Part shown: positions 2,211 to 34,565 of the stretch, in pieces
Position numbering within the stretch: the first letter of the stretch is position 1
How the letters are laid out: every line of letters begins with the position of its first letter
Assembly: GCF_023016805.1 (NCBI RefSeq)
Contig: NZ_JALKCH010000004.1
Location: 124,001 to 188,000 of the forward strand
DNA from: Ancylobacter crimeensis
GTDB lineage: Bacteria > Pseudomonadota > Alphaproteobacteria > Rhizobiales > Xanthobacteraceae
Length of the DNA stretch: 64,000 bases
Reading direction: 5' to 3'
Made by a program: the position numbers and the translations under genes
Notes under the pieces: generated by a model
The model's input: only the letters and a program-made list of their open reading frames with translations
What the model was told of the DNA's origin: nothing
Databases searched by the model: none

Positions 2211-3731
<1,521 letters not shown>

Positions 3732-4223: not shown

Positions 4224-4991
4224 TCAGGCCGGATGTGCCGCCTGCGCCTCGTGCACGGACATGCGGCGCCCGGGGCGTTCCTGCGGGAACAGCCCGTCGA
4301 GCCAGGAGCCGAACACCGCGCCGGCGACGCGGGCCGCATCCGGGTGACGGGCGATGCCGGCCTGCCGCAGCGCGGCGACGTCGATCCTTGCGACGCCGAG
4401 TTCGACGCTGTGGCCGACATACCATTCCTCCAGCTCGCGCGCGTCCGCCTCCAGATGGAACTGGAGGCCGAGCCCGCAGCGGCCGAAGGAAAAGGCCTGG
4501 TTCTCATAGAGTTCGTTGAAGGCGAGCCGTTTCGCGCCGCGGGGCAGGTCGAAGGTGTCGCCATGCCAGTGCAGAACCTGCGTACCGGCTTCCGCGAGCG
4601 GCGCCAGCGGCGAACGGTGCCCCTCGCGCGTGAGGGCGAGGCTTCCCCAGCCGATCTCCTTCTGCGGCCCTGCGAACACCGGCGCGCCGAGCGCGGCGGC
4701 CATGAGCTGCGCGCCGAGGCAGATGCCGAGGGTCGGTTTGTGGCGGGCGAGACGGTGCTCGATGAGGGCGATCTCGCGCGTCAGGAAGGGAAAGGCGTGC
4801 GCGTCGCCGACCCCGATCGGTCCGCCCAGCACGATGACGAGGTCGGCATTGGCGATGGAGCGATGGCCGAGATCGTCGGTCGCCGCCTCGCAATAGGCGA
4901 TGTCCCACCCCGCCGCGTCGAGCACGCCGGCGAGCAGCCCCAGATCCTCGAACGCGACATGGCGCACCGCGACCACCGACCGCCGTTTCAT
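4224..4991 (-). CDS. Class I glutamine amidotransferase-like protein
   Basis: A 255-residue stand-alone class I glutamine amidotransferase domain, similar in form to the glutaminase part of GMP synthase. The nucleophile elbow GICLGAQL carries the catalytic Cys, and the His-Glu pair is in QFHLE, so the triad looks intact and ammonia release from glutamine is plausible. The acceptor substrate is unknown. The frame is open for 29 codons further upstream, but ATG 4991 has a GAGGAAGAGAGG ribosome-binding site and fits the domain start. It lies downstream of the ModE-like gene on the same strand with a 93-base gap, possibly one transcript. Confidence 0.82.
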   Translation of the reverse strand: MKRRSVVAVRHVAFEDLGLLAGVLDAAGWDIAYCEAATDDLGHRSIANADLVIVLGGPIGVGDAHAFPFLTREIALIEHRLARHKPTLGICLGAQLMAAALGAPVFAGPQKEIGWGSLALTREGHRSPLAPLAEAGTQVLHWHGDTFDLPRGAKRLAFNELYENQAFSFGRCGLGLQFHLEADARELEEWYVGHSVELGVARIDVAALRQAGIARHPDAARVAGAVFGSWLDGLFPQERPGRRMSVHEAQAAHPA

Positions 4992-5084
4992 ATCTGGCCT
5001 CTCTTCCTCGCAGATGCGAACGTTATATCCAATGAAGCATAACGAGCAACGGCAAAACGCTCGTCCCGGCAGCCGCACGGCGTT

Positions 5085-7203: not shown

Positions 7204-8715
7204 TCAGGCGCCGTGTCCAGCCCGGCGGGCGTCCGTGAGGATGTCCGCCAGCACGGCGATGCCCTCGTCGATCTGGCTTTCGCCGAAGGCGCTGAAGCCC
7301 ATCGTGATCAGATCGTCCATCTCCGCCTCGCGCGCCAGTGCGGCGATGGGCAGGATCTCCAGTCCCCGCCGCGCCGCCGCCTGCGCGATCTGCCGCGCGC
7401 TGAGGCCGGGCGCGAGGCGGACGATGATCTCCATGCCCGTGTTGGTGGGGCTGGCGGTCATCCATGGTGCAAGATGCGTGGCGATGGCGTCCAGCAGATA
7501 GTCCTGTCGCTGTGCATAGAGCCGGCGCATCCGTCGTACATGGGCGGCGAGGTGGCCTTCCTCCATGAAACGCGCGACCAGCGCCTGCTCGAACATCGGC
7601 GAATAGCGCCCGACCACGGTGCGCGCCGCGACGAAGGGCTCCACCAGCGCATCCGGCAGCACCGCGAAGCCGAGGCGAAGGCCGGGGAACAGCATCTTGC
7701 TGAAGGTGCCGAAATAAAGGACGCGACCTTCCCGGTCGAGCGCGTGGAGAGCGGGCATGGGACGGCCGGCATAGCGGAACTCGGTGTCGTAATCGTCCTC
7801 CAGAATCCACGCGCCGGCACCACTTGCCCATTGCAGCAGGGCATGACGGCGCTCAAGGCTCAATTCCATCCCGAGCGGGAACTGCTTGGAGGGCGAGACA
7901 TAGGCGAGGCGCGCATCGGGGGCGCGGGCAATGCCCTCGCCGACCAGCAGGCCCTCCTCGTCGACCGGCACCGCCACCGGCACGGCGCCGGCCGCCGTGG
8001 CGGAGGCGTAGATGCCGTCATAGCCGGGATCCTCGCACCACACGCTCTCGCCGGGCGTGAGGAGGATACGGCAGGCGAGATCGACCGCGTGCTGCGCGCC
8101 CGCGAAGATGACGATGTTCTGCGGCCCGCAGGTGAGCCCGCGGCTTAGCGCGACATGCTCGGCAATGGCGATGCGCAGCGGCTCGTAACCCTGCGGGTCG
8201 CCCTCGCCGAGCAGTTCGCCCGCCGTCTCCGGGTCGAGGGACCGGTAGAGCCCGGCGGCGAGGCTCGCCCAGCGCTGCACGGGGAACATGTCCACCGCCG
8301 GGAAATTGGCGCGGAACGGCACCGGCCGGCGCATGTGGCGCAGGGTGAGCGGCACATTGGTGATGGCGGTGCTCGGCGCCAACGAGCCGTTGAGCTGGCC
8401 GGCGGCCCGGATCGCGGGGTTGATGCGCGCAGGCGCCTTGGCCGGCCTTTGCTCGGGCAGCTCGCGCGCGACATAGGTGCCCGATCCCGTCTGCGGCTGC
8501 AGGAAGCCTTCGGAGATGAGATTGTCGAAGGCGAGCAGCACGGTGTTGCGGGAGACGCCGAGCAGGCGCGCGAAATCGCGGGTGGAGGGCAGCTTCTCCC
8601 CCGGCTTGAGCGCGCCGCCCGCGATCTTCTCCACCAACCCGCTATAGAGCTGGCGGTGCAGCGGGGCGTCCGCGTCCCGCCCGATGTCGAGTGCCAGTGA
8701 ATCCAGCAGGTGCAT
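7204..8715 (-). CDS. MocR/PdxR family regulator (GntR HTH fused to PLP aminotransferase fold)
   Basis: A 503-residue MocR-type transcription factor. Residues 15-85 form the GntR winged helix (LHRQLYSGLVEKI, LPSTRDFARLLGVSRNT). The rest is a class I aminotransferase fold with ILEDDYDTEFRY (Asp for the pyridine nitrogen) and the PLP lysine in GTFSKMLFPG (K340). Such proteins use PLP or its adduct with an amine as effector, and often control PLP, GABA, taurine or amine genes. Here it is the last gene of the minus-strand arm carrying the polyamine-type importer and the aminotransferase, so a role in regulating that locus is likely. GGGGAGA precedes the chosen ATG. Confidence 0.88.
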   Translation of the reverse strand: MHLLDSLALDIGRDADAPLHRQLYSGLVEKIAGGALKPGEKLPSTRDFARLLGVSRNTVLLAFDNLISEGFLQPQTGSGTYVARELPEQRPAKAPARINPAIRAAGQLNGSLAPSTAITNVPLTLRHMRRPVPFRANFPAVDMFPVQRWASLAAGLYRSLDPETAGELLGEGDPQGYEPLRIAIAEHVALSRGLTCGPQNIVIFAGAQHAVDLACRILLTPGESVWCEDPGYDGIYASATAAGAVPVAVPVDEEGLLVGEGIARAPDARLAYVSPSKQFPLGMELSLERRHALLQWASGAGAWILEDDYDTEFRYAGRPMPALHALDREGRVLYFGTFSKMLFPGLRLGFAVLPDALVEPFVAARTVVGRYSPMFEQALVARFMEEGHLAAHVRRMRRLYAQRQDYLLDAIATHLAPWMTASPTNTGMEIIVRLAPGLSARQIAQAAARRGLEILPIAALAREAEMDDLITMGFSAFGESQIDEGIAVLADILTDARRAGHGA

Positions 8716-8786
8716 GATGTCTCCCCGACCGGTGCCGCCGGAGAAACGCAAGTTCCGCGCCATCGCCTTCGCGCTTTCGCGCCGGC

Positions 8787-9608
8787 TCACACCGCGCTGC
8801 GTTCGCGCTCCGGCCGGTGGCCGAAGGTGACGAGGCCGGTCATCATCAGCACGAACATGATGCCCAGCAGCAGGAACACCACGAGGTTCACGCAGGTCGC
8901 CAGCGCGTAGAGTTCCGGCTTCACGCCGTAGCGCAGCGCGCCCCAGGCGGCGGAGGGCAGAGTGGGCGTCGCGCCGAGGAGATAGAACGAGATCTCCAGA
9001 TTGTTGAACGCCATGATGAAGGTGACGATGAAGGCACCGAGCAGTCCCGGCCAGACGAGCGGCAGCGTCACCTCGAAGAAGGTGCGCGCCGGGCTCGCCC
9101 CGAACACCATCGCCGCATCGTCGAGCCGCCAGTCGTAACGGTAGAGCTGGGTGGCGATGATGAGCAGCGCATAGCTGAAGCAGTGCACCACATTGGCGAG
9201 CACGGCGGACACCATGTTGCCCTGCAGGCCGAGGAACAGGCCGTTGAAGATCAGCGAGGAGATGCCGAGCAGCACCTCGGCGATGAAGAGCGGAGCGATG
9301 AACAGCGCGAGGTAGAGCGGCGCCCGCCGCCCGGCATGGCGCATCAGTCCGATAGTCGCGAGGCCGGCCAGCGCGGTGGCGATGGTCGCGGAGGCGAAGC
9401 CGATGATGAGGCTGTTGCCGAGCGCGGTCTGGTACAACGAGCTGGCGAACAGGCGCTGCATGGTGTCCAGCGTCCATTTCGGCGGATAGGGGAAGATCGA
9501 GTTCCGCGCGAAGCTGGCCAGCCCGATGTGGAGGATCGGCAGATAGAGGAACAGATAGGTCAGCACGACGATCGACAGCAGCGCGATCTTGCCCGGTTTC
9601 ACCCGCAT
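8787..9608 (-). CDS. ABC transporter permease, PotC-like
   Basis: A 273-residue inner-membrane permease of the spermidine/putrescine type. It has a hydrophobic N-terminus (LLSIVVLTYLFLYLPI) and five to six predicted helices. The cytoplasmic coupling motif EAA appears as DAAMVFGASPARTFFEVTLPL. It is the second of two permeases. Its ATG lies just after the stop of the first permease, with GGGAGGGG as ribosome-binding site. With the ATPase, the first permease and the TAT-exported binding protein it forms a complete importer. The substrate is unknown; the linked aminotransferase suggests an amine. Confidence 0.88.
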   Translation of the reverse strand: MRVKPGKIALLSIVVLTYLFLYLPILHIGLASFARNSIFPYPPKWTLDTMQRLFASSLYQTALGNSLIIGFASATIATALAGLATIGLMRHAGRRAPLYLALFIAPLFIAEVLLGISSLIFNGLFLGLQGNMVSAVLANVVHCFSYALLIIATQLYRYDWRLDDAAMVFGASPARTFFEVTLPLVWPGLLGAFIVTFIMAFNNLEISFYLLGATPTLPSAAWGALRYGVKPELYALATCVNLVVFLLLGIMFVLMMTGLVTFGHRPERERSAV

Positions 9609-9609
9609 C

Positions 9610-10470
9610 TCATCCCCTCCCGAAGCCGGTGAAGCCGGTGCGCCGCAGATCGACGAGCCGCGCGACGATGACGACCAGCAGCACCGACACCGCGAACAGC
9701 ACCACACCCATCGCCGCGCCGAGCGCCCAGGTGCCGCTTTCGCCGAATTGCTGCGCCATCGCCATGCCGTAGAGCGTGCCGTTCGGACCGCCGAGGAAGC
9801 GGGGCGCCAGCGTGGCGGAGAGGCACGGAATGAAGCACAGGGCAAAGCCGATCAGCGTGCCGAACAGGTTCAGCGGCCAGGTGACCTCGATGAAGGCGCG
9901 CGCCGGGCTGGCGCCAAAGATCTTGGCGGCGTCGATCAGGCGCTGGTCGAAATTGAGCAGTGACAGGTAGATGACCGTCACCACGATGGGCAGGTACAGA
10001 TAGACGAGGCCGATGGCGCTCGCGACATTGGTGTACATGATGACCCGGAGCGGCGCCGCGCCCAGCGCCATCAGCACCCCGTTCAGCAGGCCGATCGGTC
10101 CGAGCAGGCCCTGCAATGCGATGATGCGCAGCACCTCGCCGGTGAGGAACGGCACCGCGAAGCCCAGCGTCAGCAGCAGCCGGTAGCGCCCGCCATAGAG
10201 GATGATGGCATAGGCGATCGGCCAGGCGAGAGCCGTGCAGATGAGCGACACCACGCTTGCCATGACGAGCGAGCGGACGAGGAAGGTCATGTAGGCGCCT
10301 TCGGTCGCCAGCACATGATAATTGCCGAGATTGAACTCGCGGATGATGTGGTAGCTCTCGGTGCGCCACACGCTGAGCACCAGCATGGAGAGCAGCGGCA
10401 GCACGAACAGCGCGACGAGGAAGGCGGTCGGCAGGCCGAGGAAAAGCGCAGGGGCGAGGCGTGCCTTCAT
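9610..10470 (-). CDS. ABC transporter permease, PotB-like
   Basis: A 286-residue inner-membrane permease with an N-terminal signal-anchor helix, six predicted membrane segments and the EAA-type loop DAAKIFGASPARAFIEVTWPL that docks onto the ATPase. It is the first permease of the importer. The start ATG overlaps the TGA of the ATPase gene (TGATG arrangement), indicating translational coupling; a GTG one codon earlier is possible. Family resemblance is to polyamine/opine permeases (PotB), as for the other components. Confidence 0.88.
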   Translation of the reverse strand: MKARLAPALFLGLPTAFLVALFVLPLLSMLVLSVWRTESYHIIREFNLGNYHVLATEGAYMTFLVRSLVMASVVSLICTALAWPIAYAIILYGGRYRLLLTLGFAVPFLTGEVLRIIALQGLLGPIGLLNGVLMALGAAPLRVIMYTNVASAIGLVYLYLPIVVTVIYLSLLNFDQRLIDAAKIFGASPARAFIEVTWPLNLFGTLIGFALCFIPCLSATLAPRFLGGPNGTLYGMAMAQQFGESGTWALGAAMGVVLFAVSVLLVVIVARLVDLRRTGFTGFGRG

Positions 10471-11549
10471 CACGGCTCTCCCGTCGCGGAGAAGAGGTCG
10501 ACGTCGCTCTTGTCCCAGAAGGCGACCACATCGGTGCCCGCGCTGAACTCGGCCTCGCTGCGCGGCCGGCTGGCGACGATCTCGCCGCCGGCCCAGCCGA
10601 GCACATATTCGGCATAGGCCCCGCGCAGGATGACATGACGGATGGTGGCCGCGAGCGCGTTGGCGGCCGGGGCGTCGCCCGGCGTCGCGGGCTTGAGGCG
10701 GATCTTCTCGTTCTTCACATAGGCTGCCGCGCGGCTTCCCGCCGGCAGGCCGGGATGGTGTGGCGCCTCGATAACGATGCCCTCGCCGCGCAGCGTGGTG
10801 GTGTCGCCCGCGGCCGCGGCCAGCCCCTCGAAGCGGTTGGAGCGGCCGACGAACTGCGCGATGAAGGCGGTCTTCGGCCGGTCATAGATATCGGTGCGCG
10901 CGGCGAAATCCTCGATGCGCCCGCCACGGACGACCGCGATGCGGTCGCTCATGCTCAGCGCCTCTTCCTGGTTGTGGGTGACATAGATGAAGGGGATGCC
11001 GAGCGCCGTCTGGTGCTTGCGGATCTCGACCTCCATCTCCTGCCGCAATTCGCGATCGAGATTGGCGAGCGGTTCGTCGAGCAGCAGCACCTTCGGCCGC
11101 CCGACGAGGCCGCGGCCCAGCGCGACGCGCTGCTGCTGGCCGCCGGAGAGCTGGTTGGGATAGCGCTTCTCCAGCCCGCGCAAGGCGAGGATACCGAGCA
11201 CCCACTCCACCCGCTCCTCGATCTCGCCCTTGGGCAGCTTGAGCATGCGAAGAGGGAAGGCGAGGTTCTCGTAGACGGTGCGGTGGGGGAACAGCAGGAA
11301 TTCCTGGAACACCATCGCCACCCCGCGCCGGTGCGGCGGCAGGTGGGTGACATCCTCGCCATCGATGAGCACGCGGCCCTGGGTCGGCGTCTCCAGCCCG
11401 GCGATGATGCGCAGAAGCGTCGTCTTGCCGGAGCCGCTGGGGCCGAGCAGCGACACGAATTCGTGCTTCTCGATCGCCATGGTGACGCGATCGACCGCCC
11501 AGACGCTCCCATACTGCTTGGATACGCCGTCGAGGGTTATGTAGGCCAC
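10470..11549 (-). CDS. ABC transporter ATP-binding protein, PotA-like
   Basis: A 359-residue importer ATPase. Walker A is GPSGSGKTT, the signature is LSGGQQQR, Walker B is [12 protein letters not shown] and the switch is VTHNQ. After residue 240 comes a C-terminal TOBE-like regulatory domain (NRFEGLAAA and following), as in PotA/UgpC. The start is taken as GTG 11549, from where the protein aligns with the family ([14 protein letters not shown]), with GGGAG upstream. A longer frame to ATG 11681 is open but Arg/Pro-rich and unlikely. It couples directly to the PotB-like gene. Confidence 0.88.
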
Positions 11550-11706
11550 GCCGCACTCCCGGTGTGCAAGGGGACAGAAGGCGGAAGGCCCCGACGGCGG
11601 ATGCGCCCGGGCCTGGGCCGCCCGGCGAACGCGTGCGCGCCGGGTGGGCCGTCTCGCCATGGTGTCGCGCCGCTCCCGCACGGGGAACGGCGCGGCCGCG
11701 GTCCGC

Positions 11707-12906
11707 TCAGGCGGCCTGCATGCGCGACCAGACGCGCTCCCACTTCTCCGGCGAAGAGGGCTGGTCGAACATGTACATGCTGGCCAGTTCCTCGGTGCGG
11801 TCCATGAGGAACAGCTTCTGTTCCTCCGGGGTCGAGATCGCGCGCAGGTCGATGGTCGCGGAGGAACCGGCGACGAGCGAGATCTTCTTGATGTTCTCGG
11901 GCGCGAGGAAGGTGTTCATGAAGTCGTGGCAGATGTCGAGCATGGCCGGGTCGGTCACGCCCGAGGTCACCAGCCAGGTATCGACCCAGCCGAGGCCGCC
12001 TTCCTTCGGCACCAGCTGGTGCGCGAAGTCGAGGTCGATCTCGCCCTTTTCCTTCTTCTGGGTGAGCACGCGATAGACCTGCGCGAATTCCGGCGCGGCG
12101 ACGATGGCGCCGCTCTCCAGAAGCTGCTGCAGCGTGGTGTTGTCCTGATAGCGGGTGAGCAGCAGCGGCTTCTGCTGGATCAGCAGCTTCTCGACCTCGG
12201 CCAGCTCTTCATCCGTCAGCACATAGGGGTTGAACGACTTGCCGTCGGGGCGCGGCTTGTCCTTGGTGCCCATGCGGGTGGCGACGAGGATGCCGGCGAG
12301 GGCGATGTTCTCCTCGAAGCGGGCGCTGGTGGCGAGCCGGCCGGAGAAGGCCGGGTCGAACAGCGCCTCGATGCTCTGCACCTTCTCCTTCGGCATGCCG
12401 GCGGTGTTGTAGGTCGTGCCGTAGCTGCCCCAGCACCAGGTGACGCCGAAATGCTGGCCGTTGGCCTCGTCGGTCAGCAGCTTGTAACGCTCCGGCTTGA
12501 ACACCGGATAGACATTCGCGGTGTTGGGGATCTTGCCGTAGTCGATGGCGCGGATCAGTTTCTCGCGGAAATACAGGCCCGGCCAGAAGCCATCCGCCTG
12601 AACAAGGTCGAAATCCTTGGTGCCGCCGACGCGCAGCTTGTTGTAGGCCTCGGAATTCCCGTCGAAGAAGGTCGGCGAGAACTTGATCTTGTGCTTCTCC
12701 TCGAAGGCCCCCACGATTTCGGGAACCGCATAGACCTCCCACATCAGCGCGCGAAGCTGAGCCGGCGCCGCCGAGGCGGGCCGGATATAGGGCGCGGCGA
12801 TCGCCGTCGCTGCGCCGGCCGCAAGGGTCTTGAGCACCGTGCGGCGGTTGATGGACGTGGCGGAGGGGACCGCCGTGTCGAACGGACTGCACTTCGAATG
12901 GGTCAT
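11707..12906 (-). CDS. Extracellular solute-binding protein, PotD-like, TAT-exported
   Basis: Periplasmic binding protein of the polyamine/opine ABC importer, 399 residues. The N-terminus carries a twin-arginine signal (NRRTVLKTLAAGAAT) and a likely cleavage after PASA. The mature part begins with QLRALMWEVY and EEKHKIKFSP, followed by an aromatic-rich domain typical of the PotD/PotF group. ATG 12906 is chosen with AGAGGG about ten bases upstream; a GTG two codons earlier also exists. About 200 bases with a GC hairpin separate it from the aminotransferase. The ligand cannot be read from sequence. Confidence 0.87.
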   Translation of the reverse strand: MTHSKCSPFDTAVPSATSINRRTVLKTLAAGAATAIAAPYIRPASAAPAQLRALMWEVYAVPEIVGAFEEKHKIKFSPTFFDGNSEAYNKLRVGGTKDFDLVQADGFWPGLYFREKLIRAIDYGKIPNTANVYPVFKPERYKLLTDEANGQHFGVTWCWGSYGTTYNTAGMPKEKVQSIEALFDPAFSGRLATSARFEENIALAGILVATRMGTKDKPRPDGKSFNPYVLTDEELAEVEKLLIQQKPLLLTRYQDNTTLQQLLESGAIVAAPEFAQVYRVLTQKKEKGEIDLDFAHQLVPKEGGLGWVDTWLVTSGVTDPAMLDICHDFMNTFLAPENIKKISLVAGSSATIDLRAISTPEEQKLFLMDRTEELASMYMFDQPSSPEKWERVWSRMQAA

Positions 12907-13069
12907 GGCCACGCCCTCTGGTTTTTAAGGTTGCGGGATCTGGTCCCGGCGGGCCCGGCCTTGTGGCGTTTCCTCCCGGCGCGGTCGCCCGCTCCGGTAT
13001 TCCGGCTTCTGGAAGGTTTGCGGGGCGGTCTGGCGCCGCCCTCGTTCCGGCACGTTGGTGTTCCTTTCG

Positions 13070-13090
13070 CCGCGCCCGCCCGGGGCGCGG
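13070..13090 (-). terminator. GC-rich hairpin between the aminotransferase and binding-protein genes
   Basis: CCGCGCCC (13070-13077) pairs with GGGCGCGG (13083-13090) around a five-base loop, about 20 bases downstream of the aminotransferase stop. No U-run follows, so partial termination or 3' end stabilisation is more likely than full termination. Confidence 0.45.
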
Positions 13091-13109
13091 CCGGTCCTTC
13101 GGTCGCGGC

Positions 13110-14051
13110 TCAGGCCGCGGCCTTGAAGGGGTTCTCGGCATCGGCATAGTTGACCGGCGTCATGTGCCAGCCTTCCTTGTGCTTGCGCCAATACGTCTCC
13201 TTCAGCTTCGCGCTGATCGGGCCCGGACGGTCATTGCCGTAGATGCGGTCATTGACGCGGGCGCACGGCATCACGCCGCCGGCGGTGGTGGTGGTGAATA
13301 CCTCGTCGGCATCCATCAGGTCGTCGAAGGTGATGGGGCCGATCACCGGCTGGAGGCCGAGCTCCGGGCAGAGGTCGAGCACCGACAGGCGGGTCACGCC
13401 TTCCAGCGCGCCGCGGTCCGGCGTGATGACCTTGTCGTCCTTCACGATGAAGACGTTGAAGCCCGAGCCTTCGGTCAGGAAGCCGTCCTGGTCGAGCAGG
13501 ATGGCGGTGTCGAAGCCCTTGTCGAGCGCCTCGAACATGCCGCGGGTGAAGTCGCGCCACATGTAGTTCTTCAGCGTCGGGTCGAGCGATTTCGGCGAGA
13601 TGCGCGGCACCGAGGCGACCAGCAGATGCGCGCCGCGCTCCTGCACGTCCGGCTTGATCACGTCCACCCACGGCACCGCATAGGCGATGAAGGTGTTGGC
13701 GCAGTCGAGCGGATTGCGCGAGCCATAGACCTTCGGCACGCCGCGGGTGGAGATCATGGCCACGAAGGCGTCCTTCAGCCCGCTGAGCGCGACCACCCGG
13801 CCGAGGATGTGGCGCATCTCCTCGCGGGTCACGCCCGGATCGAGTCGATAGCCGGCAAGCGACTTGTGGAAGCGGTCGAGATGGTCCTCGAGGCGGAAGA
13901 AGCCGCCATCGGTGACGTGCACCACGTCATAGGTCACGTCCGAATGCACGAAGCCCCAGTCGCCGACCGGAATGCGGGCCTCGGAGATGGGGACATAGAC
14001 GCCGTTCATATAGGCGGCGCCCTTGGAATAGTCCGGGGTCGGCTCGGTCAT
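13110..14051 (-). CDS. PLP class IV aminotransferase, (R)-amine-transaminase-like
   Basis: A 313-residue fold-type IV transaminase. The catalytic lysine is in DPTLKNYMW (K161), the PLP-nitrogen Glu is in LTEGSGFN (E194) and the phosphate cup is TTTAGGVMP. The N-terminal FVHSDVTYDV and FFRLEDHLDRF blocks resemble (R)-selective amine transaminases more than branched-chain or D-alanine enzymes. Where the Aspergillus terreus enzyme has Glu117 and Arg128, I read Ala98 and Tyr109, so carboxylate handling may differ. The start has AAGGAGA. It lies between a DeoR regulator and a polyamine-type importer, suggesting amination or deamination of the imported compound. Confidence 0.85.
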   Translation of the reverse strand: MTEPTPDYSKGAAYMNGVYVPISEARIPVGDWGFVHSDVTYDVVHVTDGGFFRLEDHLDRFHKSLAGYRLDPGVTREEMRHILGRVVALSGLKDAFVAMISTRGVPKVYGSRNPLDCANTFIAYAVPWVDVIKPDVQERGAHLLVASVPRISPKSLDPTLKNYMWRDFTRGMFEALDKGFDTAILLDQDGFLTEGSGFNVFIVKDDKVITPDRGALEGVTRLSVLDLCPELGLQPVIGPITFDDLMDADEVFTTTTAGGVMPCARVNDRIYGNDRPGPISAKLKETYWRKHKEGWHMTPVNYADAENPFKAAA

Positions 14052-14203
14052 CGCGTTCTCCTTCTCAAGCCGCCGGTCTCACGGGGATGCGGCGGGGTTC
14101 GGAAGGCAGCTTTCCCCCGAATGGCTCCCCCAAAAAGCACCGCTTTGCCGGAAAAGGACGGGGCCACTTCGAAAGGCCAGCCCTGCGGGGTGAATGGGAC
14201 GGT

Positions 14204-14986
14204 TCATGTCGCAGCTCCCGCGAGGAGCACCTCGACACCGTCCGCGATCAGCCGGTCGGCCATCGCGGCGGGCGGCGGGGCGTCGGTCACCAGCCGGTCG
14301 ATTTCCGCGAGCGGCGCGACCGAGAAGATGCCGGCGCCGGCGAATTTGGAGCCGTCCGCCAGCACGGTGACGCTGCGCGCCTGCCGGATCATCATCCGGG
14401 CGATCTCGGCCTCGGCCTCGTCGAAGTCCGATACGCCGTCCCGCCCGATCGCGCCGATGGTGAGCACCGCATGGAGCGCGTGGAAGCGCTGAAGCTGCTC
14501 GATCGCGATAGGCCCCAGATTCTCCCCGCCGCTCTCGCGGTAGCGTCCGCCGATGAGGAAGACGGTGCTGCCTTCGCCCCGCGCGGCCAGCGCCGCGATC
14601 GGGGTGGAGTTGGTGATCACGGTAAGGCCGCGGGCGAGGGCGAGTTCCTCGGCGAAGCACAGCGTGGTGGTGCCGGTGTCGACGAAGAGCGAATCTCCCG
14701 GCCGGAACAGTGCCGCCGCCCGCCGTGCGATGGCTCGCTTGGCCGGCCCGTTCTCCCGGAGGCGTTCGCTAAAGGGGCCCTCCGCCACCCGGCCCTGGCT
14801 TCCCGGCTCGGGCAGGCTGGCGCCGCCATGGACCTTGCGCAGCCAGCCGCGCCCGTCGAGTTCGGCGAGGTCGCGGCGGATGGTCTCGCGCGAGGCGGCG
14901 AGCTGTTCCGCGAGCGCGTCGACGCTCATCCGCTCATGCTGGCGAACGAGTTCGACGATCCTGTCCCTGCGCTGCCGGGGTGTCAT
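14204..14986 (-). CDS. DeoR/GlpR family transcriptional regulator
   Basis: A 260-residue sugar-phosphate-responsive repressor. The N-terminal helix-turn-helix is seen in MTPRQRRDRIVELVRQH, DALAEQLAASRETIRRDL and VHGGA. The effector domain has the DeoR signature blocks FVDTGTTTLCFAEEL, VITNS and DGSKF. It is divergent from the GlpA-like/FAD/FGGY-kinase operon across 102 bases containing two inverted repeats. It also heads the aminotransferase and importer arm, so it probably controls both, with the kinase product as a likely inducer. This is inference from family behaviour. Confidence 0.88.
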   Translation of the reverse strand: MTPRQRRDRIVELVRQHERMSVDALAEQLAASRETIRRDLAELDGRGWLRKVHGGASLPEPGSQGRVAEGPFSERLRENGPAKRAIARRAAALFRPGDSLFVDTGTTTLCFAEELALARGLTVITNSTPIAALAARGEGSTVFLIGGRYRESGGENLGPIAIEQLQRFHALHAVLTIGAIGRDGVSDFDEAEAEIARMMIRQARSVTVLADGSKFAGAGIFSVAPLAEIDRLVTDAPPPAAMADRLIADGVEVLLAGAAT

Positions 14987-15000
14987 GGCGATGACCGAAG

Positions 15001-15038
15001 CATCATAAATGATGATTGAATGGTCATATCTATTGACC
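15001..15038. promoter_or_regulatory. Two inverted repeats in the deoR/dehydrogenase divergent region
   Basis: CATCAT-AA-ATGATG at 15001-15014 is a perfect inverted repeat. GGTCA at 15022-15026 pairs with TGACC at 15034-15038 across seven bases. Both lie between the divergent starts at 14986 and 15089 and are candidate operators for the DeoR protein. Confidence 0.5.
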
Positions 15039-15088
15039 GATCAGTCAAGAAGGGTAGAGAGTCTTTTTCGAAGCGTTCCGGGTCAGGC

Positions 15089-16480
15089 ATGGGTGCGGGT
15101 GTGGTTGCGGATGTTGCGGTGATCGGTGCCGGCGCGGTGGGCTGCGCCGTGGCGCGCCGCTTCGCTCTCGACGGGGCATCCGTGCTGTTGCTGGAGAAGG
15201 GTGCCGACCTGCTCTCCGGCGCCAGCAAGGCGAACAGCGCGATTCTGCACACCGGCTTCGACGCGCCGCCCGGCAGCGTCGAGCTTGCCTGCATGCAGGC
15301 GGGCTATCGCGAATATCTGGCGATCCGAGAGGGGTTCAACCTGCCCGTTCTGGAGACCGGCGCCATGGTGGTCGCGTGGTCGCGGGCGGAGGAGGCGGCG
15401 CTTCCCGCCATCGCGGCGCAGGCGGTGGGAAACGGCGTCGAGGATGTGCGGCTGCTCACGGCTGCCGAGATTGCGGAGCGCGAGCCGCATCTGGCGCCCG
15501 CCCGCGCTGCGCTGCTGGTGCCCGGCGAGCATGTGATCGACCCCTGGTCGCCGTTCCTCGCCTATCTCCGGCAGGCGACGGCGCTCGGCGCACGGCTGAG
15601 CTTTTCCACCGAGGTGACGGGCGGGACATTCAACGGCGAGGTCTGGACTCTCGATACCACGCGCGGGGCCTTTCGTGCCCGTTCGGTCATCAACTGCGCC
15701 GGGCTGTTCGGCGACCGCATCGAGGCGCTATTGCTGGGCGCGGCGCATTTCGAGATCCGGCCGCGCAAGGGCCAGTTCGTGGTGTTCGACAAGGCGGCGA
15801 GCGCGCTGCTGCGCAGCATCGTGCTGCCGGTGCCGACCGAGCGTACCAAAGGTGTCGTGCTGTGCCGAACGGCTTTCGGCAATGTGCTGGTCGGCCCCAC
15901 GGCCGAGGAGCAGCAGGACCGCGAGCACGCCGCGACCGATGGCGCCACCCTTCAGGCTCTCATCCGCCGCGCGGTGGAGATGGTGCCGGCGCTCGCCCGC
16001 ATGGATGTCACCGCGACCTATGCCGGGTTGCGGCCGGCGAGCGAGGAAAAGCATTACCGCATCGTCGCGCGCCCGGAGCTGCGCTGGATCACGGTCGGCG
16101 GCATCCGCTCGACCGGGCTGACGGCGTCGCTCGGCATCGCGCAGCATGTGGCACGGCTGTACCGGGACACGAAGGAGGCCAAGCATCATCTCCCCTCACG
16201 CCTCGCGCCGTCCGTTTCCATGCCGAATCTCGCCGAGCATCTGCCGCGCGACTGGCAGTCCCCGGGCCATGGCGGGATCGTCTGCCATTGCGAGCTGGTG
16301 ACGTTGCGCGAGATCGAGGCCGCATTGGGCGGCGAGGTGCCGGCACGCGATTTCGGCGGCCTGCGCCGTCGCACCCGCTGCGCCATGGGCCGCTGTCAGG
16401 GCTTCGGCTGCCTCGGTCGCCTGGCCGAGCTGACGCGCGGGCGGCTCCAAGTGCCACTTGCCGAGGGTGGCGGCTCATGA
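15089..16480 (+). CDS. GlpA-like FAD-dependent dehydrogenase with C-terminal BFD-type [2Fe-2S] domain
   Basis: A 463-residue flavoprotein of the DAO/GlpA/L-2-hydroxyglutarate dehydrogenase group. The FAD-binding Rossmann motif is VIGAGAVGCAVARR, followed by LLLEKGADLLSGASKANSAI. The C-terminal region has a bacterioferritin-associated-ferredoxin-like module (IVCHCELVTLREIE, then CAMGRCQGFGC) with four Cys suited to a [2Fe-2S] cluster, as in anaerobic glycerol-3-phosphate dehydrogenase subunit A. It probably oxidises a polyol phosphate made by the downstream kinase. ATG 15089 gives the family N-terminus; the open frame to 15020 has no support. It overlaps the next gene by four bases. Confidence 0.85.
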   Translation: MGAGVVADVAVIGAGAVGCAVARRFALDGASVLLLEKGADLLSGASKANSAILHTGFDAPPGSVELACMQAGYREYLAIREGFNLPVLETGAMVVAWSRAEEAALPAIAAQAVGNGVEDVRLLTAAEIAEREPHLAPARAALLVPGEHVIDPWSPFLAYLRQATALGARLSFSTEVTGGTFNGEVWTLDTTRGAFRARSVINCAGLFGDRIEALLLGAAHFEIRPRKGQFVVFDKAASALLRSIVLPVPTERTKGVVLCRTAFGNVLVGPTAEEQQDREHAATDGATLQALIRRAVEMVPALARMDVTATYAGLRPASEEKHYRIVARPELRWITVGGIRSTGLTASLGIAQHVARLYRDTKEAKHHLPSRLAPSVSMPNLAEHLPRDWQSPGHGGIVCHCELVTLREIEAALGGEVPARDFGGLRRRTRCAMGRCQGFGCLGRLAELTRGRLQVPLAEGGGS

Positions 16481-17697
16481 TCGAAGCGTGCGACGTGCTC
16501 GTCGTCGGTGCCGGCCCGGCCGGCCTCGCGGCGGCGACCCGGCTGCGCGAGCGCGGCCTCGGCACTGTGGTCGTGATCGACCGGGATCCGTTGCCCGGCG
16601 GCATTCCCCGGCATTGCGGGCACTCGCCCTTCGGGATGCGGGAGTTCGCCCGCATCCTCACGGGTCCCGCCTATGCGCAGGCGCTGGCGGACCGGGCCCG
16701 CAAGGCGGGCGTCGAACTCCGGCTCGCCACCACGCTGGTCGGCATCGACCGGGGGCAGCCGCTGGTCGCGACCGTGACCTCGGATGCCGGCATGGCACGT
16801 CTGATGCCGCAGCGTATCCTGTTGGCGACCGGCGTGCGCGAGACGCCGCGCTCGGCCCGGCTCATCGGCGGCGACCGCCCGCTGGGTGTGATGACGACCG
16901 GGGCCCTCCAGCTTCTCGCCGAGCGCGGGCTCTCGCCTTTCCGCCGCCCGGTGATCGTGGGCAGCGAACTCGTGGCGTTGTCGGCGCTGCTGACCTGCCG
17001 TTCCATCGGCGCCCGGCCGGTCGCGATGATCGAGGCCGATGAGCGTCCTACGACGCGCCGGCCTTTCCTGCTGCTGCCGCGCCTGCTTGGGGTTCCGGTG
17101 CGCTATGGCGCGGCCTTGGCGCGGATCGAAGGTGTCTCGCGGGTCGAGGCGGTGACGCTGGACCATGCCGATGGCGCGATGGAGCGCCTTGCCTGCGACG
17201 GCGTGGTGCTGACCGGGCGCTTCACGCCGGAAGCGACGATGGTGCGGGCCGCCGGTCTGGAGATCGACCCGGGCACGCGGGGGCCCTCCATCGACCAGCT
17301 CGGCCGCACCAGCGACCGCCGCGTGCTGGCCGCCGGAAATCTGCTGCATCCGGTGGAAACCGCCGGGCGCTGCTGGGCGGAGGCGCGGATGATCGCCGAC
17401 GGCCTTGCCGACGACCTCCTCGGGAGCAGCCAGGGCCATGAGACGCCGGTGGAGGTGCAGGCTGGTCCGGGCATTGCTTATGTCGTCCCGCAGCGCCTCG
17501 CCGGCTCGGCGCCCGGCATGGGAAGGCTGCAGATTCGCGTCGGCGGCGCCCGGAACGGCCGGATCGTGGTGGGCACGGATGACGGACAGGTGGCGGCGCG
17601 GCCCCGCGCGCGGCTTCTTCCCGAACGGCGGATCGACATGGCGATCCCAGCCTTGGCGGAAGGGGTGAGGCGGTTGCGGGTCGGTATCGAGGAATAG
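16477..17697 (+). CDS. NAD(P)/FAD-dependent oxidoreductase, partner of the GlpA-like protein
   Basis: A 406-residue pyridine-nucleotide-disulphide-type flavoprotein. The N-terminal VLVVGAGPAGLAAATRL binds FAD, GGIPRHCGHSPFGM follows, and ATGVRETPRSARL is the usual second FAD contact; a late VLAAGNLLHPVETAGRC block closes the FAD domain. The C-terminal YVVPQRL stretch is typical of oxidoreductases paired with GlpA-like subunits. It probably passes electrons between the GlpA-like [2Fe-2S] protein and NAD or the quinone pool. Translation is coupled by ATGA overlap. There is no GlpC-like membrane anchor nearby, unlike in glpABC. Confidence 0.8.
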   Translation: MIEACDVLVVGAGPAGLAAATRLRERGLGTVVVIDRDPLPGGIPRHCGHSPFGMREFARILTGPAYAQALADRARKAGVELRLATTLVGIDRGQPLVATVTSDAGMARLMPQRILLATGVRETPRSARLIGGDRPLGVMTTGALQLLAERGLSPFRRPVIVGSELVALSALLTCRSIGARPVAMIEADERPTTRRPFLLLPRLLGVPVRYGAALARIEGVSRVEAVTLDHADGAMERLACDGVVLTGRFTPEATMVRAAGLEIDPGTRGPSIDQLGRTSDRRVLAAGNLLHPVETAGRCWAEARMIADGLADDLLGSSQGHETPVEVQAGPGIAYVVPQRLAGSAPGMGRLQIRVGGARNGRIVVGTDDGQVAARPRARLLPERRIDMAIPALAEGVRRLRVGIEE

Positions 17698-17701
17698 CGC
17701 C

Positions 17702-19138
17702 ATGCGGGTCGTTGCGATCGACCAGGGAACGACCTCGACCCGCGCACTGGTGCTCGATACCGCGACGGGTGCTGCCGACATCGCTCACATCGTCCGCCAC
17801 GCGACCTTTCATCCGCAGGCGGGATGGGTGGAGCAGGATGCGGCGGAACTCCTCGCCAATGTCCGCGCCTGCCTTGCCGCGGCGGGCACGGCGGACGCGG
17901 TGGCGCTCGCCAATCAGGGCGAGAGCTGTCTCGCCTGGGACGCGGTGAGCGGGGAACCGCTGTCGCCCGTCATCGTCTGGCAGGACAACCGGACGGCGGC
18001 AAGGCTGGGCGGTCTTGCGGACGCCCCGCCCGAGATCGCCCGGAGCAGCGGGCTGCCGCTCGATGCCTATTTCTCTGCCTCGAAACTGGCGTGGCTGCTC
18101 GACAACGTGCCGGCGGTGGGCGCAGCGGCGCGGGCAGGGCGGCTGCGGCTCGGCACCACGGATGCGTTTTTTCTCGACCGGCTGGCCGGCAGCTTTTCCA
18201 CCGACCCGACCACCGCCTCGCGCACGTCGCTGATGAACCTCGCGACCTGTGCGTGGGACCCGGAGCTGTGCCGTCTGTTCGGCGTGCCCATGGCGGCGCT
18301 GCCGCAGATCCGGCCGAGTGCGGGTGTGCGGGGCCGGATCGCCGGGGCGCCGGTGCTCGCTGCGCTGGTGGATCAGCAGGCCTCCCTCTATGGGCATGGC
18401 TGCCGCATGCCGGGCGCGGCGAAGATCACCTTTGGCACCGGGGCCTTCGCGCTGGCGGTGACGGGGGGCGACATCATCCGCGCGAAAGGCGAGGGGTTGC
18501 TGCCGACGGTGGCGTGGAGCACCGCATCGCAGACCACCTATGCGCTGGATGGCGGCGTCTACGATGCCGGCTCCGCGGTCGAATGGGCCATCCGCATCGG
18601 CGTGCTCGACGAGGTCAGCCAGCTCGATCGGTTCGACGCGCCGGCCGCCATCGACCGCGGCCTCGTATTCGTGCCCGCTTTGTCGGGCCTTGCCTGTCCG
18701 CATTGGGACCGCACGGCCGCCGCCATGTGGCTCGGCATGAGCGGGGCGACGACGCGGGCCGATCTCCGGCAGGCGCTCGTCGAGGGCATCGCGCTGCGCA
18801 CAGCGGAGGTGGTGGCCGCCATCGACCGGCATGTCCAGCTTGGTGTTCTGCCCGCGCAGGCCATCTCCATCGACGGAGGACTGAGCCGCAGCGGCTATTT
18901 CTGCCGGTTCCTCGCCGATGTGCTGGGGCGGCAGGTGGTGCGCAGCGCCTTTAGCGAGCGCACCGCCTATGGCGCCGCCCTGCTCGCGGCGGCGGCGATG
19001 GGCGCCGAGGTCGTCCCCTTGACGGCGCCTGAGGAGACTCTTGCGCCGACCCATGCGGGTGCGCGCAAACGGGAGGAGAGGCGCGCGCGTTTCGCCGAGG
19101 CGGTGAGGCGCTGCCGGGAGTGGCGGGGCATCGCGTGA
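17702..19138 (+). CDS. FGGY-family carbohydrate kinase, glycerol-kinase-like with altered substrate site
   Basis: A 478-residue actin-fold kinase. The N-terminal phosphate-1 loop is VAIDQGTTSTRAL, and ITFGTGAFAL and IDGGLSRSGYF are the later nucleotide motifs. Compared with E. coli GlpK, the glycerol contacts Glu84, Trp103, Tyr135 and Asp245 appear kept (E74, W93, Y123, D224), but Arg83 is replaced by Gly (G73 in NQGES). This suggests a related polyol or ketose rather than, or besides, glycerol. The gene starts four bases after the oxidoreductase stop and ends the operon. The protein is slightly shorter than GlpK. Confidence 0.88.
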   Translation: MRVVAIDQGTTSTRALVLDTATGAADIAHIVRHATFHPQAGWVEQDAAELLANVRACLAAAGTADAVALANQGESCLAWDAVSGEPLSPVIVWQDNRTAARLGGLADAPPEIARSSGLPLDAYFSASKLAWLLDNVPAVGAAARAGRLRLGTTDAFFLDRLAGSFSTDPTTASRTSLMNLATCAWDPELCRLFGVPMAALPQIRPSAGVRGRIAGAPVLAALVDQQASLYGHGCRMPGAAKITFGTGAFALAVTGGDIIRAKGEGLLPTVAWSTASQTTYALDGGVYDAGSAVEWAIRIGVLDEVSQLDRFDAPAAIDRGLVFVPALSGLACPHWDRTAAAMWLGMSGATTRADLRQALVEGIALRTAEVVAAIDRHVQLGVLPAQAISIDGGLSRSGYFCRFLADVLGRQVVRSAFSERTAYGAALLAAAAMGAEVVPLTAPEETLAPTHAGARKREERRARFAEAVRRCREWRGIA

Positions 19139-22850: not shown

Positions 22851-23759
22851 TCAGGCCGGTGTGTGCGGCCGCCCGATGGGTGCCTGATATTGCGGAATGA
22901 GCTCGATACGCGGCGCGTAGGATCCGGTCGCTACCAGCATGCGCAGATGGGCGGCGATGTCCTCCATCGGCGCCAGCCAGACATCGCCCCGTGCGACGAT
23001 CTCCTCGAGGAAGCGCGCCGCCTCGTGCCAGCGGGCGAGCCGGCCGGTGGCGAAGGGGTGGCACACCGCGACCCATAGCGCGCCGTGCTGGTAGGCCGCC
23101 TCGAATTCCTCCCGATAGATGCGCCAGCCATCGGAAGGCGCGCGGATCGGCATCAGGTAGCCGAGGTCGCCAGACTGGACGAATTGCGGCCAGTCGTCGA
23201 GGCCCCAATGGCTCGGCAGTTCCACCAGCCGCCGGCCGTCGCGCCGGCTCTCGATGAGATAGGGCAGGTCGTCGCCCATCAGCGAGGCATCATAGGCGAA
23301 GCCGCGATCCAGCAGCAGGTCCAGCGAATGGGAGGAAAAACGATACGTCGGCGCGCGCCAGCCGCGTGGCGCCCGGCCGGTCATGCGCAGGTGCACCTCG
23401 GTCGAGACATCGAGCCAGTGGGCCTGTTCCTCCAGGCCGGCGAGCTGGGGATTTTCGTGGATGTAGCCGTGATGGCCGATCTCGTGGCCGCCCGCGAGAA
23501 TGGTTTCCACCGCGCGGGGATACTGCTCCATGCACCAGGCGGGCAGATAGAAGGTCTGCCGGATGCCGAGCCGACGATAGGTCTCCACGATGCGCGGCAC
23601 CGCCACCTCCGGCCCGTAGCGCAGCATCGACACCTGCGCGACCCGGTTGTGCCCGTCATCGGGGAAGGCGAGATGGATGAGGCTGTCGGCATCCATGTCG
23701 AAGGTCAGGCAGGCGGCGCATTTCGCTCCGTTCGGCCAGGGGATGGGATTGGCGATCAT
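22851..23759 (-). CDS. Polysaccharide-deacetylase-fold hydrolase, PuuE-like
   Basis: A 302-residue NodB-fold hydrolase. Metal-binding and catalytic blocks are LTFDMDADS, HEIGHHGYIHEN, RAPTYRFSSH and a C-terminal VCHPF. The arrangement resembles PuuE-type allantoinases and cyclic-imide or peptidoglycan deacetylases lacking a signal peptide, so action on a cytosolic amide is likelier than on cell-wall sugar. It follows an agmatinase-family gene on the same strand, about 170 bases away, which favours nitrogen-compound catabolism. ATG 23759 was chosen; the open frame upstream is Arg-rich. Confidence 0.8.
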   Translation of the reverse strand: MIANPIPWPNGAKCAACLTFDMDADSLIHLAFPDDGHNRVAQVSMLRYGPEVAVPRIVETYRRLGIRQTFYLPAWCMEQYPRAVETILAGGHEIGHHGYIHENPQLAGLEEQAHWLDVSTEVHLRMTGRAPRGWRAPTYRFSSHSLDLLLDRGFAYDASLMGDDLPYLIESRRDGRRLVELPSHWGLDDWPQFVQSGDLGYLMPIRAPSDGWRIYREEFEAAYQHGALWVAVCHPFATGRLARWHEAARFLEEIVARGDVWLAPMEDIAAHLRMLVATGSYAPRIELIPQYQAPIGRPHTPA

Positions 23760-23933
23760 GGTCGGGCTCCGGAAGCTGTCCGCCGGGTGAGGCAAGGCGC
23801 GTGCAAGGATGGCAGGCGGGCGTTCACGTACTGCCCGCCCGCGGCGGCGTTTGCGGCTGCCGCCCCGCCGAAACATCCCTTTCGCGAACCGGGATGGCCG
23901 GAGACTGGCCCGGCCATGGCGGAATCAACCGTC

Positions 23934-30545: not shown

Positions 30546-30582
30546 TCTCCCTCCCCGAAGATTTGTTGCGACGCGTGATTGC

Positions 30583-30610: not shown

Positions 30611-30651
30611 CAGGCCGTCCAGCGGAGCCATCAAGGGACCAGAAGCCGCTC

Positions 30652-31122: not shown

Positions 31123-31125
31123 GCG

Positions 31126-31773: not shown

Positions 31774-31775
31774 CC

Positions 31776-34551: not shown

Positions 34552-34565
34552 AAGGCGGGATGAAC

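What the first reader, a model, noticed from the sequence alone, without database searches (positions are those of the whole stretch)
7204..19138. Two-armed locus for an unassigned amine/polyol pathway
Minus arm: DeoR, (R)-amine-transaminase-like enzyme, polyamine-type importer with TAT-exported binding protein, MocR regulator. Plus arm: GlpA-like FAD/[2Fe-2S] dehydrogenase, a second FAD oxidoreductase, FGGY kinase. The combination of importer, transaminase, kinase and phospho-polyol dehydrogenase under two regulators suggests that an amino-polyol or similar compound is imported, deaminated, phosphorylated and oxidised. I know of no described pathway with exactly this set. The two arms could also be independent neighbours.
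Basis: partly seen in the sequence, partly recalled or inferred. Interest (0 to 1): 0.7.

Follow-up and report, generated by a model that had tools for sequence, protein, structure and literature searches.

The report
Amino-alcohol module beside amine-import operon
Two gene sets that usually live apart sit back to back here: one looks like an unrecognised route for using small amino alcohols (ethanolamine- or serinol-like), built from relatives of the glycerol enzymes, and the other imports and deaminates an amine.

Summary
The genes are as described, but the locus is two units. Unit 1 is DeoR plus a GlpA-like flavoprotein, a second flavoprotein and a kinase. It is a widespread four-gene module (25 of 27 kinase loci from relatives; 526 stretches encoding the flavoprotein in named genomes, best 80 examined). 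Unit 2 is the (R)-amine-transaminase, a polyamine-type ABC importer and MocR: a separate operon, intact in 13 of 15 congeners that have it. In the genus (30 genomes) both occur in 11, unit 1 only in 9, unit 2 only in 5, neither in 5; they adjoin only here. In Methylopilaceae 4 of 18 genomes have the transaminase, and all 4 keep the same ten-gene order. One congener keeps a truncated DeoR relic beside unit 2.

Unit 1 is probably not plain glycerol metabolism. The kinase lacks GlpK signature Arg83 (Gly in 101 of 101 module kinases). Elsewhere the module travels with the ethanolamine importers EtoX or EutH, amino-acid/amine permeases or polyamine-type ABC importers, though 44 of 111 loci show none of these. 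I infer phosphorylation of a small amino alcohol, then oxidation. The genome already has ethanolamine ammonia-lyase, so I slightly favour a relative such as serinol, giving dihydroxyacetone phosphate and ammonia. No substrate is shown.

The parts
7204..8670 (-). MocR/PdxR-type regulator (GntR plus class-I aminotransferase domain); exact start codon not settled
   Evidence: NCBIfam PdxR 402 bits over cut-off 320, Pfam GntR and Aminotran_1_2; last gene of the conserved six-gene operon
8787..9608 (-). PotC/PotI-like permease
   Evidence: PRK10592 101 bits, below its cut-off 476
9610..10473 (-). PotB/PotH-like permease
   Evidence: PRK09497 124 bits, below its cut-off 348
10470..11546 (-). PotA-like ABC ATPase
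   Evidence: ABC_tran and TOBE_2; potA 312 bits, below its cut-off 355.6
11707..12912 (-). PotD/PotF-type solute-binding protein with twin-arginine leader; polyamine proximal pocket lost
   Evidence: SBP_bac_8; W-E-V-Y where a solved polyamine-binding protein has W-T-D-Y, Q at the second Asp, third Asp kept
13110..14051 (-). class-IV, (R)-amine-transaminase-like enzyme
   Evidence: PF01063 143 bits; top PDB hits amine transaminases
14134..14169 (-). conserved operator/promoter-like element upstream of the transaminase (AAGYGG direct repeats), possibly the MocR site
   Evidence: about half of its 36 positions invariant in all 18 aligned loci; only match in the window with up to 2 mismatches, 0 in 100 shuffles
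14204..14986 (-). DeoR/GlpR-family regulator; belongs to the plus-arm module
   Evidence: Pfam DeoRC and HTH_DeoR; present with the module in 97 of 111 loci
15033..15048 (.). palindrome TTGACCGATCAGTCAA between DeoR and the GlpA-like gene, probable DeoR operator
   Evidence: unique in the window (expected 0.01); TTGAC-N6-GTCAA with at most 1 mismatch in 20 of 112 upstream regions (5 of them the two-arm loci from which the pattern was taken) against 18 of 2240 random control stretches
15089..16480 (+). GlpA/GlpO-like FAD protein with BFD [2Fe-2S] domain
   Evidence: DAO 207 bits, Fer2_BFD; type-2 G3P oxidase 193 bits, below its cut-off 460; best PDB relative 4x9m, L-alpha-glycerophosphate oxidase
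16477..17697 (+). second FAD oxidoreductase (Pyr_redox_2, SoxA-alpha-like)
   Evidence: Pfam and NCBIfam soxA 65 bits; present in 106 of 111 module loci
17702..19138 (+). FGGY kinase, GlpK-like fold, NQGES in place of GlpK NQRET (Arg83 to Gly)

Best explanation
Two units. Unit 1 (DeoR and the plus arm) is a kinase-first catabolic module for a small amino alcohol of the ethanolamine class, HO-CH2-CHR-NH3+. The GlpK-like kinase phosphorylates the hydroxyl. The GlpO-like flavoprotein oxidises the carbon next to it, removing the amine (or a neighbouring hydroxyl), and passes electrons through its [2Fe-2S] domain and the second flavoprotein. With serinol as substrate the product would be dihydroxyacetone phosphate plus ammonia, needing no further enzyme. 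Unit 2 (the minus arm under MocR) imports an amine through an ABC transporter that has lost the diamine pocket, and deaminates it with an (R)-amine-transaminase-like enzyme. In genomes with both units side by side, unit 2 probably stands in for the importers (EtoX, APC, EutH) that unit 1 carries elsewhere. Shown by sequence: gene content, conservation, importer swapping, the kinase residue change, separate operator-like sites. Inferred: the substrate class, the order of reactions, the exact substrate and the link between the units.
For: Importers beside unit 1: 60 of 111 module loci have an ethanolamine- or amine-linked importer or EutB nearby (EtoX 25, EutH 13, APC 13, two-arm 4, polyamine-type ABC without AT4 5, EutB 4; overlaps exist). 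In the genus EtoX occurs in exactly the 19 kinase-bearing genomes other than the window's own, 2.7-2.8 kb from the kinase in each, and in none of the 10 without the kinase (largely one inheritance, not 19 independent events). The corrected kinase tree needs 7 gains or losses of EtoX (3 forced by well-supported branches) and 4 of APC (4 forced). In 119 Pseudomonas genomes the module is in 7; 6 of these have EutH 1.3-5.6 kb away (5 full length, 1 fragment) and the seventh has an APC permease. The EtoX-type SBP matches 4uab at E 6e-133; a characterised EtoX binds ethanolamine at Kd 7.9 uM (PMC10132767, passages), and its homologue Csal_0678 is reported to bind ethanolamine (PMC4646407, passage). 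NQGE[ST] in 101 of 101 distinct module kinases, NQRET in 4 of 4 GlpK; Arg83 is one of five GlpK signature residues (PMC3245297, passage). The two-arm kinases form one clade (SH-aLRT 98); 4 of 4 AT4-bearing Methylopilaceae genomes have both arms in the same order. The window's genome has no EtoX at E <= 1e-60.
Against: No biochemistry. 44 of 111 loci show none of the importers looked for (some are short contigs); 4 have a sugar-type ABC and 3 only another TRAP. The APC family carries many amino acids and is weak evidence. All 30 genus genomes have ethanolamine ammonia-lyase EutB, so ethanolamine needs no second route. Four of five GlpK signature residues are kept and the predicted fold is that of GlpK, so activity on glycerol is not excluded. 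Co-presence of the arms in the genus is random (Fisher p = 1.0).
Confidence: 0.55

Rival explanations
1. Unit 1 uses ethanolamine itself: ethanolamine is phosphorylated to phosphoethanolamine and oxidised to phosphoglycolaldehyde and ammonia, as a B12-independent alternative to EutBC.
For: EtoX and EutH are ethanolamine importers; EutB and EutC adjoin the module in three Salipiger loci and EutB in one Thioclava locus.
Against: EutB is in all 30 genus genomes, away from this locus in the window's genome; I saw no gene for the product phosphoglycolaldehyde recurring with the module in the neighbour clusters (only 20 representatives were scanned for families).
Confidence: 0.25
2. Unit 1 is a variant of plain glycerol use, for example for the glycerol part of phosphatidylethanolamine, which would also explain ethanolamine importers nearby.
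For: GlpK fold, 4 of 5 GlpK signature residues, GlpO-like oxidase, GlpR-like regulator.
Against: The genome has a GlpK-like gene elsewhere (40% to this kinase; NQRET type); the module kinases are a separate clade (SH-aLRT 100) and all those checked lack Arg83; EtoX or APC genes lie inside the module between DeoR and the GlpA-like gene in several lineages.
Confidence: 0.15
3. The two arms are neighbours without shared function; the ten-gene arrangement was inherited or transferred as one block.
For: Random co-presence in the genus; separate operator-like sites; unit 2 occurs alone in 5 genus genomes; unit 1 occurs without AT4 (E <= 1e-60) in 8 of 11 genomes tested outside the genus.
Against: Order kept in Methylopilaceae in 4 of 4 AT4-bearing genomes, with no EtoX, EutH or APC found within 5 kb; polyamine-type ABC importers lie beside the module in unrelated lineages too.
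Confidence: 0.35
4. One reading: import by the ABC, transamination by AT4, then phosphorylation and oxidation of the resulting ketone or aldehyde by the plus arm.
For: Both arms adjoin and all needed activities are encoded.
Against: The plus arm usually occurs without AT4 (AT4 near 0 of 27 loci; absent from 8 of 11 genomes), so it does not need a transaminated substrate; a G3P-oxidase-like enzyme would have little left to oxidise if the carbon were already a ketone (inference).
Confidence: 0.1

Closest known systems
Glycerol catabolism by GlpK with GlpA-type or type-2 G3P oxidase
   Same: Kinase fold and four of five signature residues; flavoprotein with residues aligned to H, K, R and S of the Mycoplasma oxidase; DeoR/GlpR-family regulator
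   Different: Arg83 of GlpK replaced by Gly in all module kinases checked; separate clade; scores below GlpK and type-2 oxidase cut-offs; amine-type importers; a GlpK-like gene exists elsewhere in the genome
EtoX TRAP ethanolamine uptake with gamma-glutamylation (Chromohalobacter, Phaeobacter)
   Same: The same importer family lies in the plus-arm module of many relatives
   Different: There it serves a gamma-glutamylethanolamide route (PMC10132767, passages); here it adjoins a kinase and two flavoproteins
EutBC ethanolamine ammonia-lyase
   Same: EutH adjoins the module in Pseudomonas, EutBC in Salipiger
   Different: B12 enzyme, no kinase (recalled); EutB present separately in the window's genome
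PotABCD/PotFGHI polyamine importers
   Same: ABC subunit families and binding-protein family
   Different: Proximal amine pocket replaced (two Asp lost), scores below the family cut-offs
(R)-selective amine transaminases (fold IV)
   Same: Best solved relatives over nearly the full length
   Different: Natural substrate here unknown; encoded with an ABC importer and MocR
RtxA DHAP aminotransferase (rhizobitoxine/serinol synthesis)
   Same: The same metabolite pair, serinol phosphate and DHAP (PMC3222319, passages)
   Different: A transaminase working in the opposite direction, not a flavoprotein

Membership tests
GlpK glycerol kinase | Signature residue Arg83 | tested here: not met
   Gly in 101 of 101 distinct module kinases, window included; NQRET in 4 of 4 GlpK rows (a fifth GlpK row, read in the wrong frame, was dropped)
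GlpK glycerol kinase | Glu84, Tyr135, Asp245, Phe270 | tested here: met
   Aligned columns E74, Y123, D224, F249 of the window kinase; residue roles from PMC3245297 (passage)
GlpK glycerol kinase | NCBIfam TIGR01311 cut-off | tested here: not met
   401 against 590 bits
GlpK glycerol kinase | Glycerol phosphorylation | not testable with these tools
   needs an enzyme assay
Type-2 glycerol-3-phosphate oxidase | NCBIfam NF033460 cut-off | tested here: not met
   193 against 460 bits
Type-2 glycerol-3-phosphate oxidase | Active-site His, Lys, Arg, Ser | tested here: met
   H54, K254, R315 and S341 align with 4x9m and are invariant in 11 aligned module proteins; the catalytic roles are recalled, not read
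PotFGHI/PotABCD polyamine importer | Proximal pocket Ser38, Asp39, Asp247 | tested here: not met
   E, V and Q in the window protein by alignment to 3ttl; pocket from PMC8666671 (passages); the transfer of PotF numbering to 3ttl is recalled
PotFGHI/PotABCD polyamine importer | Distal Asp278 | tested here: met
   Asp kept, same caveat on numbering
(R)-amine transaminase | Class-IV family and closest similarity to (R)-ATAs | tested here: met
   PF01063; top PDB hits amine transaminases, several named (R)-selective
(R)-amine transaminase | Activity on (R)-amines | not testable with these tools
   needs an assay
MocR/PdxR regulator | NCBIfam PdxR cut-off | tested here: met
   402 against 320 bits; the rhizopine MocR cut-off is not met (446 against 650)
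EtoX ethanolamine TRAP importer | EtoX binding protein present in the window's genome | tested here: not met
   none at E <= 1e-60; present in 19 of 29 congeners
EtoX ethanolamine TRAP importer (in relatives) | Ethanolamine-contact residues conserved | not tested
   residue list not available to me; nearly full-length match, E 6e-133, to 4uab
EtoX gamma-glutamylation pathway | Gamma-glutamylase and two dehydrogenases in the operon | not tested
   no search for these genes was made

The most novel reading that the evidence does not exclude
The plus arm is a widespread, undescribed phosphorylation-first route for serinol-type amino alcohols: a GlpK-descended amino-alcohol kinase and a GlpO-descended amino-alcohol-phosphate dehydrogenase turn serinol into dihydroxyacetone phosphate and ammonia. 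The route has repeatedly swapped importers (EtoX TRAP, EutH, APC, polyamine-type ABC) while keeping its enzymes.
Probability: 0.35. Interest if true: 0.75.

Novelty: new variant of a known kind. Interest (0 to 1): 0.6.

Why it matters
By homology the module would usually be read as glycerol kinase and glycerol-3-phosphate dehydrogenase. If it instead takes amino alcohols, those annotations mislead in many alpha- and gammaproteobacteria and some deltaproteobacteria, and bacteria have a further route for amino-alcohol nitrogen and carbon besides EutBC and gamma-glutamylation. The four-gene set is small and testable with purified enzymes, and the repeated importer swaps give a clear prediction of the substrate class.

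Tried and rejected
Single pathway across both arms: rejected as the general case by independent carriage in the genus and by plus-arm genomes without AT4. Polyamine (putrescine/spermidine) as the minus-arm substrate: disfavoured by the lost proximal residues. Plain glycerol: disfavoured, see rivals. DeoR as regulator of the minus arm: no second palindrome in the window with up to 1 mismatch, although DeoR transcription could read into AT4.

Led nowhere: paper searches for the module or for serinol/ethanolamine plus kinase listed nothing that looked like such a module (judged from listings). They cover only open-licence PMC papers. The paper by Vetting and colleagues (10.1021/bi501388y) is not held, so I cannot say that this module is absent from print. 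The catalytic-residue paper for the Mycoplasma oxidase was not found. The predicted kinase model only confirmed a GlpK fold.

Errors of mine: the window slice was taken from a wrong record and was not counted; the window row was empty for the same reason; it was put right. One GlpK outgroup row (L033) was translated on the wrong strand and disturbed the EtoX count there (8 changes, 4 forced); one search repeats the tree without it and without the duplicate L182, and its figures (7 and 3) are used here. In one search L105 and L182 are one locus, and L039 and L056 come from one genome. In the motif count only kinase matches over 380 residues and 300 bits were used. One search was given 12 loci and searched 11 (L169 not held). 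G006 has AT4 copies but no binding-protein match; it is counted as plus arm only.


Full report
Observation. The minus strand holds DeoR, a class-IV aminotransferase (AT4), a binding protein with a twin-arginine leader, three ABC subunits and a MocR/PdxR-type regulator. The plus strand holds a DAO flavoprotein with a BFD [2Fe-2S] domain, a Pyr_redox_2 flavoprotein and an FGGY kinase. The best solved relatives are amine transaminases, several named (R)-selective, for AT4, glycerol kinases for the kinase, a glycerophosphate oxidase for the DAO protein and, for the SBP, polyamine-binding proteins and the Listeria protein Lmo0810.

The plus arm with DeoR is one module. A search of 151 genomes (the window's own and relatives) separated kinase orthologues (55-62% identical, with one at 46% and one partial at 59%) from ordinary GlpK (about 35-43%). 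I fetched 27 kinase loci. In 25 of 27 the kinase, both flavoproteins and DeoR lie together, in most same-genus loci with a TRAP importer between DeoR and the GlpA-like gene; L043 ends at a contig edge before DeoR, and L059 is rearranged. None of the 27 holds AT4, the SBP, either permease or MocR within the fetched stretch (about 10 kb each side, less where a contig ends); the only minus-arm-like hits were ABC ATPases of 25-40% identity. A scan of named genomes with the DAO protein found 526 encoding stretches, of which the best 80 were kept and examined: Hyphomicrobium, Methylopila, Neorhizobium, Pseudomonas, Salipiger, Labrys, Salinicola, Devosia and some Deltaproteobacteria among others. Over 111 loci (27 plus 80 plus 4; L105 and L182 are the same locus) the kinase is present in 101, the second flavoprotein in 106 and DeoR in 97 (the window itself is not in this count).

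The minus arm is another unit. In 15 other genomes of the genus AT4 and the SBP adjoin. In 13 of these the order AT4, SBP, ATPase, two permeases, MocR is intact; one (G016) has lost the rest and its SBP gene has an internal stop, and one (G020) ends at a contig edge. None has the plus-arm enzymes within the fetched DNA (20 kb, or 7.7 kb for G020). AT4 relatives of 63-65% identity are followed by a different, only 28-46% identical, polyamine-type ABC set in four further loci (L083-L086), so the pairing of AT4 with such an importer is older than this operon. Upstream of AT4 a 36-base element with AAGYGG repeats is recognisable in all 18 loci aligned, about half of its positions invariant, with or without the plus arm. 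It occurs once in the window and may be the MocR site (inference).

Are the arms linked? Within the genus (30 genomes) both arms occur in 11, the kinase module alone in 9, the minus arm alone in 5, neither in 5; Fisher p = 1.0. Within the fetched stretches they adjoin only in the window's genome. But two Methylopila genomes carry the same ten genes in the same order, one of them with an extra amidotransferase-like gene between AT4 and DeoR. In their family, Methylopilaceae, 4 of 18 genomes have AT4 at E <= 1e-80, and all 4 have the kinase in the same ten-gene order; 2 have the kinase (66%) without AT4, with an APC permease between DeoR and the DAO gene; 12 have neither (Fisher p = 0.005, no correction for relatedness). 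The two-arm kinases form one clade, SH-aLRT 98, next to the APC-linked kinases of that family, 95. One congener (G004) keeps a 5'-truncated DeoR, 72% identical over residues 57-239, directly upstream of AT4 without the plus-arm enzymes. So the two-arm locus is probably old and has decayed in the genus, while 19 congeners carry a different, EtoX-linked plus arm elsewhere.

What does the plus arm use? The importers tell most. In the genus an EtoX-type TRAP binding protein occurs in exactly the 19 kinase-bearing genomes other than the window's own, 2.7-2.8 kb from the kinase in each, and in none of the 10 without the kinase (p = 5e-8, largely one inheritance). It matches 4uab at E 6e-133. A characterised EtoX binds ethanolamine with Kd 7.9 uM (PMC10132767, passages read), and the Chromohalobacter protein Csal_0678 binds ethanolamine (PMC4646407, passage read); that 4uab is Csal_0678 I recall. 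Among 119 Pseudomonas genomes, drawn evenly from a larger group, the module is in 7 and EutH in 16; 6 of the 7 have EutH 1.3-5.6 kb from it, one of these a fragment, and the seventh has an APC permease. EutH identity was confirmed on one representative at 382 bits. Over 111 loci: EtoX 25, EutH 13, APC 13, two-arm 4, polyamine-type ABC without AT4 5, EutB 4, other TRAP 6, sugar-type ABC 4, none found 44 (categories overlap, and some loci are short). On the corrected kinase tree EtoX needs 7 gains or losses, 3 of them forced by well-supported branches, and APC 4, all forced, so importers were swapped while the enzymes stayed.

The kinase itself. PMC3245297 (passages read) gives five GlpK signature residues: Arg83, Glu84, Tyr135, Asp245, Phe270. 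In the 10 module kinases aligned the other four are kept and Arg83 is Gly; the Gly motif holds in 101 of 101 distinct module kinases, window included. Loss of an arginine at the glycerol hydroxyls fits a substrate with an ammonium group held by the remaining Glu84 (inference). The predicted model is confident (pLDDT 90) and the 50 best fold matches shown are glycerol kinases. The DAO protein keeps the residues that align with the His, Lys, Arg and Ser of the Mycoplasma oxidase, which suggests a phosphorylated substrate; their roles are recalled.

Which amino alcohol? Every one of the 30 genus genomes has EutB, in the window's genome on another contig, so ethanolamine itself probably has a route already. 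Serinol (2-amino-1,3-propanediol) is glycerol with the middle hydroxyl replaced by an amine. Kinase and oxidase together would give dihydroxyacetone phosphate and ammonia with no further enzyme, and I saw no further enzyme recurring with the module across its lineages. The reverse conversion, DHAP to serinol phosphate, is known from RtxA (PMC3222319, passages read). I therefore rank serinol-like above ethanolamine, with low confidence.

The minus-arm importer. By alignment to a solved polyamine-binding protein, two of the three carboxylates of the PotF-type pocket are lost (V and Q), with E at a third proximal position and the distal Asp kept. In PotF, S38, D39 and D247 hold the primary amine, and the variant changed at all three showed no putrescine binding (PMC8666671, passages read). 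It is therefore probably not a polyamine importer but may still hold one ammonium group.

Regulation. The palindrome TTGACCGATCAGTCAA at 15033-15048 is unique in the window. TTGAC-N6-GTCAA with at most one mismatch is found upstream of 20 of 112 DAO genes, 5 of them the two-arm loci from which the pattern was taken, and in 18 of 2240 random stretches of the same loci. The two arms thus have separate candidate operators, although DeoR and AT4 lie on one strand, 152 bases apart, and read-through is possible.

Verdict. I found no description of the module in the searches named, which cover open-licence papers only.

Noticed in passing
L117, L126, L140, L161 and other Pseudomonas-type loci, beside EutH: A small gene of one cluster (15 loci; DUF1937, PF09152, in the one member scanned) lies beside EutH at the module, and beside the APC-linked module in L151 and L153; function unknown.
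   Followed up: partly
L106:7647-9908 and its cluster mate in L135 (Mesorhizobium composti, Kaistia adipata): A dimethylformamidase-beta-like protein (PF20254, L106 member scanned) lies between DeoR and the DAO gene; it may release an amine from an amide.
   Followed up: partly
L110-L112, L114, L115, L123, L147: A gamma-glutamyltransferase-like gene, an RraA-like gene and a polyamine-type ABC set recur beside the module; in L147 they appear to be in one operon with it (names by eye, no family scan).
   Followed up: no
L097:8528-9082, L179:4166-4888, L152, L154; window 4224-5000: A class-I glutamine-amidotransferase-like gene (31-36% to the window's) recurs at or near the module, once inserted between AT4 and DeoR.
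   Followed up: no
L108, L113, L131, L137, L141, L149, L150, L168: A protein cluster (SnoaL domain in the one member scanned, L141) lies near the module, in four of these loci with a sugar-type ABC.
   Followed up: no
L081 (G006) 7918-10863: An AT4 copy (77%) lies divergent to an aldehyde dehydrogenase that is 90% identical to the one at window 2211-3731.
   Followed up: no
L082 (G006) and L072 (G016): Decaying minus arms: the binding-protein gene is missing in one; in the other only AT4 and a binding-protein gene with an internal stop remain.
   Followed up: no
window 22851-24911: Polysaccharide-deacetylase-like and agmatinase-like genes side by side (names by eye).
   Followed up: no
window 29787-37048: Looks like a phosphonate C-P lyase cluster (GntR-type regulator, PhnK-like ATPase and others; by eye only).
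   Followed up: no
L159, L165, L171 (Deltaproteobacteria): The two module flavoproteins with DeoR and a polyamine-type ABC but no recognisable module kinase in the stretch.
   Followed up: no
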